Part shown: piece by piece, positions 24,901 through 25,900 of the stretch
Layout: the number at the start of each line of letters is the position of its first letter
Numbering within the stretch: the stretch's first letter is position 1
Source of the DNA: Arenicola marina
Lineage: Eukaryota > Annelida > Polychaeta > Arenicolidae
Length of the DNA stretch: 64,000 bases
Direction of reading: 5' to 3'
Assembly (NCBI GenBank): GCA_964019135.1
Contig: OZ025249.1
Location: 31,633,759 to 31,697,758 of the forward strand
Program-made: the position numbers and the translations under genes
The notes under the pieces: generated by a model
The model's input: the letters and a program-made list of their open reading frames with translations, nothing else
The model's database searches: none
Told to the model about the DNA's origin: nothing

Positions 24901-25900
24901 TTGTATTGCTGTCTGGAACCACGTAAAGCCTTCCCTCTCAAGTGATAAATTAGAAGTCAGAGTCGCAGGTCCACTGAATAATGCTTATCATTAAAACAAA
25001 TTTAAGTGACTCCTCTTCCCACCTTGTCAAATACTGTTCTGACAGAAGCTTTGTCCAACAAGTCAACTTCATAAAAAGGAATGTTTTGCTTTGTTATTTT
25101 CTCCACTCTCCTCACGCATTCTGCAAGGACAAAGATACTTTTGTTAAATTTGTAGTTATAACCCACCTTTTTGAACACTTCTTTCAAGCAATTTTTGTCT
25201 AAGAGGTCCACAGAATAATATGTAATATCTTGCTGTGTGAGTTCTTTTACCCTGTTTAAACTTTCTGTAAACAAAAAAAGAAAAAATAATTTCAAGACTA
25301 TTTGGACTATATTTATAAAATAAAAACAAACATTCAATACAACACCTAAAAGATGCATTTTAGAAGGTAGCCCATTCTGAAACTTATCTGAGGTCTCTAT
25401 CTCTAATATTAAACGGAGATATATGTGTCCTTATGTGTTTTTTTTATTAATTGCTGTAACCTTGTCCTTTGACCTACATATGCCTACCGTTATTATGACC
25501 TTAGCCAAGCTATTCCAAATATGTATCAGTGACATATTGCTGAAAATTTTAGCTTTTCATCGTTAATAATATGATTTATCTAATACATATCCACTTATAA
25601 AAGGAAGAGTTATTCTTCCATATCAGAATATCTGTTAAATATCTGACCATATTTCCCAGATCAAATATTTAACATATATAATAATGATTAGTCCTCTCTT
25701 AAACTTTTGCCATAGTGTGAACAGTCACCAAATGATGAGATACATGTCCTGTGTTTCAGTAACTTACCTATACTGCCATTGACTAGATTATCTAGTACAA
25801 TTGCTGAATAGCCTGCTTTGATAACTTCCACTGTTGTATGGCTACCAATGTAACCTGCTCCACCAGTCACCAGAACACACTGCTTCTTGTTTTGTGACAT
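15855..25900 (-). CDS. GALE: UDP-glucose 4-epimerase, complete spliced gene
   Basis: This cytosolic NAD-dependent SDR enzyme interconverts UDP-glucose/UDP-galactose and usually UDP-GlcNAc/UDP-GalNAc (Leloir pathway and glycan donors). Coding exons, in transcription order: 25768-25900, then one of 25167-25264 or 25023-25120, then 24586-24699, 20700-20876, 20194-20374, 17252-17337, 16849-16926, 16376-16490 and 15855-15925. All junctions are GT-AG and in phase. The product is 350 residues (human about 348). Seen: Rossmann motif GGAGYIGS at 13-20, [10 protein letters not shown], catalytic Ser130 in FSSSATVYG, Tyr155 and Lys159 in [44 protein letters not shown], and a CEDLWRWQ C-terminal region. 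A splice acceptor just before the ATG (CTATTTCAG, exon start 25905) implies a 5' UTR exon further right. The two alternative exons and the repeated donor sites are described separately. Confidence 0.96.
16283..16386. repeat. About three copies of a 31-32-bp repeat overlapping a GALE donor
   Basis: GTACACATGACAT recurs at 16309, 16341 and 16372. On the gene strand the unit contains GTCATGT followed by GTACG or GTACT, which is the exon end plus donor of the GALE exon 16376-16490. The real exon end is therefore the first unit of the array, and the intron begins with two or three extra copies of its own donor. Confidence 0.8.
16376..16490 (-). CDS. GALE: GALE penultimate coding exon
   Basis: After acceptor TTTGCAG the exon encodes [20 protein letters not shown] then [18 protein letters not shown] and one base of the next codon. 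This corresponds to the UDP-binding RRxGDxAxCYAxP segment of GALE. The donor is GTACGT. Confidence 0.95.
16849..16926 (-). CDS. GALE: GALE exon ([11 protein letters not shown] segment)
   Basis: A 78-nt, phase 0 exon between acceptor AATAG and donor GTAAGC. It encodes [20 protein letters not shown] plus KASERT, the glycine-rich sugar-nucleotide-binding loop of epimerases. Confidence 0.95.
17252..17337 (-). CDS. GALE: GALE exon ([11 protein letters not shown] segment)
   Basis: An 86-nt exon after acceptor CCTAG. Its first two bases complete a Gly codon, then it reads [20 protein letters not shown] and LNEDCGCK. The donor is GTAGGT. Confidence 0.95.
17914..20215. repeat. Minisatellite, 47-bp unit, 49 copies, made of a GALE exon end plus its 5' splice site
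   Basis: Unit starts run from 17914 to 20170 in exact 47-bp steps, with no length changes seen. The right-most unit overlaps the end of the GALE exon 20194-20374. On the gene strand each unit reads TACGACACGCCGGACGGCAC, then GG and the donor GTAAGTG, then the first intron bases. The DYDTPDGTG codons and the donor are thus copied 49 times. Units differ mainly at one spot (CCGGCG, CCAGTG or CCAGCG on the plus strand). The donor core looks unchanged in every copy, and it lies in a 7-bp stem hairpin (CACGGGT pairing with ACCCGTG). Confidence 0.97.
20194..20374 (-). CDS. GALE: GALE exon ending inside the minisatellite
   Basis: After acceptor TTTATAG the exon encodes [20 protein letters not shown] then [40 protein letters not shown] and one base of a Gly codon. 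The donor at 20193 (GGTAAGTG) is the first of 49 tandem copies. Reading on past this donor meets a stop within the third unit (TAA, 20096-20098), so use of most downstream donors would truncate the protein. Confidence 0.95.
20700..20876 (-). CDS. GALE: GALE catalytic exon (SSSAT and YxxxK)
   Basis: This phase 0 exon encodes [40 protein letters not shown] and [19 protein letters not shown]. It carries the catalytic Ser and the Tyr-x-x-x-Lys pair. The donor GTAAGAT is followed by ATTATCATCTTAC, so the donor can fold into a 7-bp hairpin. Confidence 0.95.
22590..22790 (-). mobile_element. tRNA-derived SINE, diverged partial copy
   Basis: On the minus strand the B box GGTTCGAATCC is intact. It is followed by the family body (GCAGGATAAAGATTCCATGT, then AAAGAGTAGG and GTTACTCCCGG), matching the copy at 58031. 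The tail is missing. Confidence 0.75.
23301..23620. repeat. Minisatellite, 18-bp unit, about 18 copies
   Basis: The unit is GAGAGGAGTTCTGTCCCC with a few 9-bp-shorter versions. It lies inside a GALE intron. The long open frames across it on both strands are products of the repeat (18 is a multiple of three). Confidence 0.95.
24586..24699 (-). CDS. GALE: GALE exon ([11 protein letters not shown] segment)
   Basis: A 114-nt, phase 0 exon. After a long T run and ACAG it encodes [20 protein letters not shown] and [18 protein letters not shown]. The donor is GTAAGT. The FAGLKAV strand lines the NAD site. Confidence 0.96.
25023..25120 (-). CDS. GALE: GALE alternative exon B (downstream member of a pair)
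   Basis: A 98-nt exon between acceptor CCTTGCAG and donor GTGGGA. Joined to the first exon it reads E, then [20 protein letters not shown] and [12 protein letters not shown]. It has the same length and phases (1 in, 0 out) as exon A and is identical to it at 16 of 33 positions. It keeps the VDLLDK segment, whose first Asp matches the NAD-adenine-binding Asp of GALE. Confidence 0.9.
25167..25264 (-). CDS. GALE: GALE alternative exon A (upstream member of a pair)
   Basis: A 98-nt exon between acceptor GTTTACAG and donor GTGGGT. It reads E, then [20 protein letters not shown] and [12 protein letters not shown], close to the human ESLRRVQELT region. Only 46 nt (25121-25166) separate it from exon B. 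Joining A to B would shift the frame, because 98 is not a multiple of three, so one or the other must be used. Confidence 0.92.
25768..25900 (-). CDS. GALE: GALE first coding exon
   Basis: The ATG is at 25898-25900. It encodes [20 protein letters not shown] then [20 protein letters not shown] and NGSI plus one base. This is the Rossmann beta-alpha-beta unit with GxxGxxG. The donor is GTAAGT. The acceptor TTTCAG at 25906-25907 leaves only five untranslated bases, so the cap site lies in an upstream exon not identified here. Confidence 0.95.

What the first reader, a model, noticed from the sequence alone, without database searches (positions are those of the whole stretch)
25023..25264. Mutually exclusive exon pair in GALE covering the NAD-adenine loop
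Two adjacent 98-nt exons share phases (1 in, 0 out), length and 16 of 33 residues. Both have good acceptors and GTGGG donors and both keep VDLLDK. Joining A to B breaks the frame because 98 is not a multiple of three, and the intron between them is only 46 nt, probably too short to splice efficiently. Together these are the classic signs of mutually exclusive splicing. The swapped segment includes the Asp that binds the NAD adenine ribose/ring in GALE, so the two isoforms could differ in cofactor binding or stability. I do not know of such a pair described in GALE.
Basis: partly seen in the sequence, partly recalled or inferred. Interest (0 to 1): 0.9.

Follow-up and report, generated by a model that had tools for sequence, protein, structure and literature searches.

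The report
Swappable exon pair in lancelet GALE
A sugar-processing enzyme gene, probably from a lancelet, carries two alternative versions of one small exon that appear to be used one at a time, so one gene can probably make two slightly different enzymes.

Summary
On the minus strand at 25900-15855 lies a complete UDP-glucose 4-epimerase (GALE) coding region. Its second exon is present twice: 2a (25264-25167) and 2b (25120-25023), each 98 nt, phase 1 to 0, with intact splice sites, 46 nt apart, sharing 16 of 33 residues. Either exon alone gives a 350-residue GALE; both spliced, or neither, gives an early stop. Both versions fit the GALE family equally (TIGR01179 438.3 versus 440.1 bits) although silent sites are strongly diverged, so neither copy has decayed. 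Best reading: an old tandem exon duplication kept as a mutually exclusive pair. Joint splicing is probably hindered by the 46-nt gap (predicted branch points at intron positions 11 and 23), with frameshift as backup. Two corrections: retaining the 46 nt keeps the frame open (398 residues), so the frame rule has one leak; and the NAD-contacting residues of this segment (D-L of VDLLDK) are identical in both exons, so direct cofactor contact should not differ. Exon-boundary minisatellites of the kind reported in amphioxus support a lancelet origin. No transcripts or sister genomes were available. New member of a known kind.

The parts
25768..25900 (-). GALE exon 1, coding part (ATG at 25900; GGAGYIG motif and DN loop), ends in phase 1
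25167..25264 (-). alternative exon 2a, 98 nt, [33 protein letters not shown], donor AAG|GTGGGT
25121..25166 (-). 46-nt spacer intron between 2a and 2b; best branch-point-like adenines at intron positions 23 and 11; open in frame if retained
25023..25120 (-). alternative exon 2b, 98 nt, [33 protein letters not shown], donor AAG|GTGGGA
24586..24699 (-). GALE exon 3, phase 0 in and out; common acceptor for both alternatives
20700..20876 (-). GALE exon 4 (SSSATVYG and YGKTK, the SDR catalytic Ser and YxxxK)
20194..20374 (-). GALE exon 5
17252..17337 (-). GALE exon 6
16849..16926 (-). GALE exon 7
16376..16490 (-). GALE exon 8
15855..15925 (-). GALE exon 9, coding part with stop codon

Best explanation
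Exon 2 of a GALE gene was duplicated in tandem long ago, and both copies were kept as a mutually exclusive pair. Exon 1 (phase 1 out) is joined to either 2a or 2b, which is joined to exon 3 (phase 0 in), giving two 350-residue epimerases that differ at 17 positions in one helix-strand-helix unit of the NAD-binding Rossmann domain (fold recalled, not computed). Shown from sequence: the duplication, the frame logic, intact splice sites, equal fit of both exons to the GALE family. Inferred: that joining 2a to 2b is hindered mainly because the 46-nt gap puts the 2b branch point under 50 nt from the 2a donor, with frameshift and an early stop clearing the rest; that the choice of exon is regulated; and that the isoforms differ modestly in stability, NAD retention or partner contacts rather than in direct cofactor contacts.
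For: Frame outcomes: 2a alone and 2b alone give 350 aa; both spliced stops after 79 codons; neither stops after 90. The donors of 2a and 2b score above 97.8% and 96.7% of GT sites, the acceptors above 99.9% and 99.4% of AG sites, minus strand 16000-63000, within the range of the gene's other exons. Family fit equal: TIGR01179 438.3 (2a) and 440.1 (2b), NF007956 445.7 and 444.0. Against 17 epimerases with solved structures, as I grouped the entries, 2a scores better in 6 and 2b in 11, by 11.2 bits at most. Identity is 18/32, 26/33 and 15/33 at codon positions 1, 2, 3; pS 0.79 (19 synonymous sites), dN 0.38. Neutral drift of one copy to the same 59/98 base identity gave 16 or more identical residues with no stop in 0.09% (from 2a) and 0.15% (from 2b) of 20,000 runs. 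The hydrophobic class is kept at 14 of 17 differing positions (2.8% of shuffles reach this). The two best branch-point-like adenines of the spacer are at positions 23 and 11, below the roughly 50-nt threshold used for human mutually exclusive exons.
Against: No transcript evidence and no second genome. Human introns of 43, 49 and 56 nt are spliced, the 56-nt one with 27 nt from donor to branch site, so the block may be partial. Retention of the 46 nt gives an open 398-residue frame. Base pairing of the upstream intron, spacer and downstream intron did not stand out: 43 of 60 (up-spacer), 10 of 60 (spacer-down) and 13 of 60 (up-down) shuffles were as strong. Silent sites are not fully randomised: third positions agree at 15 of 33 against 8.8 expected, and 9 of the 16 shared residues use the same codon, so the age is uncertain. 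2b has the weaker splice sites of the two. Splice and branch weights were approximate, typed from recall; the drift simulation used uniform mutation and put all change on one copy.
Confidence: 0.84

Rival explanations
1. Only one exon is used in practice; the other is a silent remnant of an exon duplication.
For: No transcript data exist here to exclude it. The 2b donor and acceptor score lower than those of 2a.
Against: Both copies keep frame, length, splice sites and equal fit to the GALE family despite strongly diverged silent sites; a drifting copy would rarely do so.
Confidence: 0.08
2. The two exons and the 46-nt spacer act as one 242-nt composite exon (intron retention), giving a 398-residue GALE with the unit doubled, alone or as a third isoform.
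For: 242 nt is 2 modulo 3 like 98, and the spacer reads open for 15 codons, so the product is in frame. A 46-nt intron may be poorly spliced. The product still scores 443.7 bits with TIGR01179 and 444.9 with NF007956.
Against: Open reading is not surprising: 2844 of 5671 intronic 45-nt stretches of this gene (the exon 5-6 intron with its array left out) are open in a given frame, so with the length condition about 17% by chance. The spacer has donor and acceptor signals, and both GalE models match the product only as two separate stretches. A doubled unit would probably not fold as GALE (inference).
Confidence: 0.05
3. Artefact of assembly: two alleles or paralogous loci joined in tandem.
For: A tandem array in the B. 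floridae draft genome was reported as aberrantly assembled.
Against: 59 of 98 base identity is far too low for alleles; the two copies sit between one exon 1 and one exon 3, and no credible second copy of either was found in the window.
Confidence: 0.02

Closest known systems
OGDH exons 4a/4b in vertebrates (PMC7969005; abstract start in a listing and passages seen)
   Same: Mutually exclusive exons in a metabolic enzyme, enforced by branch points 25-41 nt from the upstream donor.
   Different: Another enzyme; there the exons set Ca2+ sensitivity and branch points are mapped by experiment; here they are only predicted, and the whole spacer is 46 nt.
Human mutually exclusive exon clusters (PMC5740500; passages and section 7 seen)
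   Same: Neighbouring similar exons in the same frame; length not divisible by three (377 clusters, 60%) and donor-branch distance under 50 (57 cases, 9%) are listed as enforcing features.
   Different: GALE does not occur in that main text; here no reads validate the pair.
PKM exons 9/10 and ketohexokinase exons 3A/3C (recalled, not looked up)
   Same: Sugar-metabolism enzymes with mutually exclusive homologous exons.
   Different: Other folds and effects; tissue control is known there and not here.
Amphioxus 'mirage' boundary duplications (PMC3087553; passages seen)
   Same: Tandem duplication across exon-intron boundaries, as at exons 5 and 8 of this same gene; proposed there as a source of new introns.
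   Different: Mirages repeat one boundary in units reported as 81-100% identical for BflGb6; the exon 2 pair is a whole-exon duplicate and strongly diverged.

Membership tests
Mutually exclusive exon pair (tandem duplicated exon substitution) | Adjacent homologous exons of compatible length and identical phases | tested here: met
   98 and 98 nt, phase 1 to 0, 16/33 aa
Mutually exclusive exon pair (tandem duplicated exon substitution) | Both exons have usable splice sites | tested here: met
   GT-AG with high scores for both by an approximate matrix; use in cells not shown
Mutually exclusive exon pair (tandem duplicated exon substitution) | Inclusion of both or neither is not productive | tested here: met
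   Stops after 79 and 90 codons; exception: retention of the spacer stays in frame
Mutually exclusive exon pair (tandem duplicated exon substitution) | Junction reads bridging each exon and none joining them | not testable with these tools
   No RNA data held
Mutually exclusive exon pair (tandem duplicated exon substitution) | Both exons conserved across species | not testable with these tools
   No genome held for the window; no animal genome collection was open to me; one viral-contig scan found no relative
Steric type (short donor-branch distance) | Branch point of the downstream exon under about 50 nt from the upstream donor | tested here: inconclusive
   Best candidates at intron positions 23 and 11 by an approximate matrix; weaker candidates inside exon 2a are not excluded
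UDP-glucose 4-epimerase GALE | Family model above curated cut-off with either exon | tested here: met
   TIGR01179 438.3 and 440.1, cut-off 262.3
UDP-glucose 4-epimerase GALE | NAD-contact Asp with following residue, and YxxxK motif | tested here: met
   VDL in both exons and YGKTK in exon 4; contacts and motif named

The most novel reading that the evidence does not exclude
GALE in this chordate lineage has two old, splice-selected versions of one Rossmann-fold unit, switched by tissue or stage, that tune enzyme stability, NAD retention or the supply of UDP-galactose versus UDP-GalNAc: a splicing control point in the Leloir pathway.
Probability: 0.35. Interest if true: 0.65.

Novelty: new member of a known kind. 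Interest (0 to 1): 0.45.

Why it matters
To my knowledge GALE is treated as a single-form housekeeping enzyme. A long-kept exon choice inside its cofactor domain would suggest that galactose and GalNAc supply can be tuned by splicing, and would give a natural pair of variants near the NAD site for testing what sets epimerase stability. Searches for 'mutually exclusive exons' with UDP-galactose 4-epimerase and with UDP-glucose 4-epimerase each found one plant transcriptome paper (listings only). Searches with amphioxus (9 of 9 listed, 8 of 8, 20 of 47) showed no title or abstract start naming GALE splicing.

Tried and rejected
Third copy or remnants of exon 2 in the window: none seen. Competing RNA pairing among introns and spacer: no excess over 60 shuffles each. 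Relatives in viral contigs: 7 pattern matches, none a relative. The window's genome is not held. Rfam families above gathering score: 0. tRNAs: 0. Allelic or assembly origin rejected on divergence. A changed NAD contact rejected because the contact residues are identical. A search for 'mirage minisatellite' listed no paper holding the phrase among the 8 shown; led to the paper used.

Full report
What is there. The minus strand from 25900 to 15855 encodes a complete UDP-glucose 4-epimerase in nine coding positions, ten exons counting the alternative pair. With either exon 2 the spliced protein has 350 residues and passes the curated cut-off of TIGR01179 (GalE) by far: 438.3 bits with 2a, 440.1 with 2b, cut-off 262.3. 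The best solved-structure match of the full-length protein was 1ek5, human GALE (organism recalled, whose query held one Gly too many, which does not affect the identification).

The pair. Exons 2a (25264-25167) and 2b (25120-25023) are 98 nt each, enter in phase 1 and leave in phase 0, and lie 46 nt apart. They share 16 of 33 residues and 59 of 98 bases. The similarity is far beyond shuffles (score 85; shuffle mean -24, s.d. 12.6, maximum 32 of 20,000). Each finds the other, and no third copy was seen in the window.

Frame logic. Exon 1 ends in phase 1 and exon 3 starts in phase 0. Either exon alone keeps the frame. Both spliced together stop after 79 codons; skipping both stops after 90. This need not mean anything, since about half of the intronic 45-nt stretches tested in this gene are open in a given frame (2844 of 5671; the exon 5-6 intron with its array was left out), or about 17% with the length condition.

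Both copies look constrained. Against 17 epimerases of known structure, as I grouped the entries, the 2a version scores higher in 6 (1ek5, human, 115.8 versus 112.8) and the 2b version in 11 (1z45, GAL10, 126.4 versus 132.6). A decayed copy should lose throughout. Identity by codon position is 18/32, 26/33 and 15/33; synonymous differences are high (pS 0.79 over only 19 sites), nonsynonymous distance is 0.38. Against full saturation, third positions still agree more than composition predicts (15 versus 8.8) and 9 of 16 shared residues use the same codon, so the age cannot be read off. Letting one copy drift neutrally to the same base identity gave no stop and 16 or more shared residues in 0.09% (from 2a) and 0.15% (from 2b) of 20,000 runs; that simulation uses uniform mutation and puts all change on one copy. 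At 14 of 17 differing positions the hydrophobic class is the same (2.8% of shuffles).

How exclusion would work. The spacer is 46 nt, not G-rich (8 G), and its two best branch-like motifs have their adenines at positions 23 and 11. In human work, distances below about 50 nt are taken as potential steric interference (PMC5740500, passages and section 7), and OGDH exons 4a/4b are kept apart by branch points 25-41 nt from the donor (PMC7969005, passages). Against an absolute block, human introns of 43, 49 and 56 nt are spliced, the 56-nt one with 27 nt from donor to branch site (PMC4463651 and PMC8363638, passages). So steric hindrance with frameshift as backup is my inference, not shown. Pairing among the introns and spacer did not exceed shuffles.

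What the swap changes. The segment should cover helix, strand and helix after the second Rossmann strand (recalled fold of the SDR family; not computed). Its cofactor contacts in relatives are an Asp side chain and the next residue: D61 and V62 in A. nidulans GALE, the second being I67 in human (PMC3792076, passages), and Asp59 and Val60 at the adenosine base in B. longum GalE (PMC6668579, passages). By alignment this is D-L of VDLLDK in both exons. The isoforms should therefore contact NAD in the same way, and differences would lie in helix surfaces, stability or partners. Net charge is 0 (2a) and +1 (2b).

Organism. No record names the source and no genome is held. Two exons of this gene, 5 and 8, have tandem repeats made of their own 3' boundary: 49 units of 47 nt, with 49 ACGG|GTAAGT junctions at exact 47-nt spacing, and about three units of 32 nt. 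Tandem repeats across exon-intron boundaries, called mirages, are reported in amphioxus Adh3 and globin genes (PMC3087553, passages).

Literature. Searches listed no paper whose title or abstract start describes mutually exclusive exons in GALE (one search showed 20 of 47 papers). The words GALE and epimerase do not occur in the main text of PMC9741552, nor GALE in that of PMC5740500 or PMC6292497. Subscription journals, supplements and annotation databases were not searched, so an annotated isoform pair in a lancelet genome record may exist.

Verdict. A real and probably functional mutually exclusive exon pair in GALE, a new member of a well-known kind, with transcripts as the missing proof.

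Noticed in passing
17913-20215: A 47-nt minisatellite of 49 units, 97% matches, begins in the last 22 bases of GALE exon 5 and repeats them with the 5' splice site; 49 copies of ACGGGTAAGT, counting the exon's own (22 with the full 22-nt exon end unchanged), all 47 nt apart. Likely an amphioxus 'mirage' array. How the true donor is chosen among so many equal ones is open; for other mirages regular splicing is reported.
   Followed up: partly
16284-16384: A 32-nt repeat, 3.2 units, straddles the 5' splice site of GALE exon 8: a second mirage-like array in the same gene. The exon 8 donor GTACGT scores low.
   Followed up: partly
9495-13281: A 48-nt minisatellite of about 79 units, 89% matches.
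   Followed up: no
35673-37903 and 39698-41881: Two blocks of about 2.2 kb, 96% identical, about 4 kb apart start to start.
   Followed up: no
53931-56471: An 846-codon open frame on the minus strand with a Core-2/I-Branching enzyme domain (Pfam Branch, 70.4 bits, residues 181-431) followed by a long charged stretch.
   Followed up: partly
2186-2821: Open frame with a Laminin N-terminal domain match (72.3 bits), perhaps the start of a laminin-like gene.
   Followed up: no
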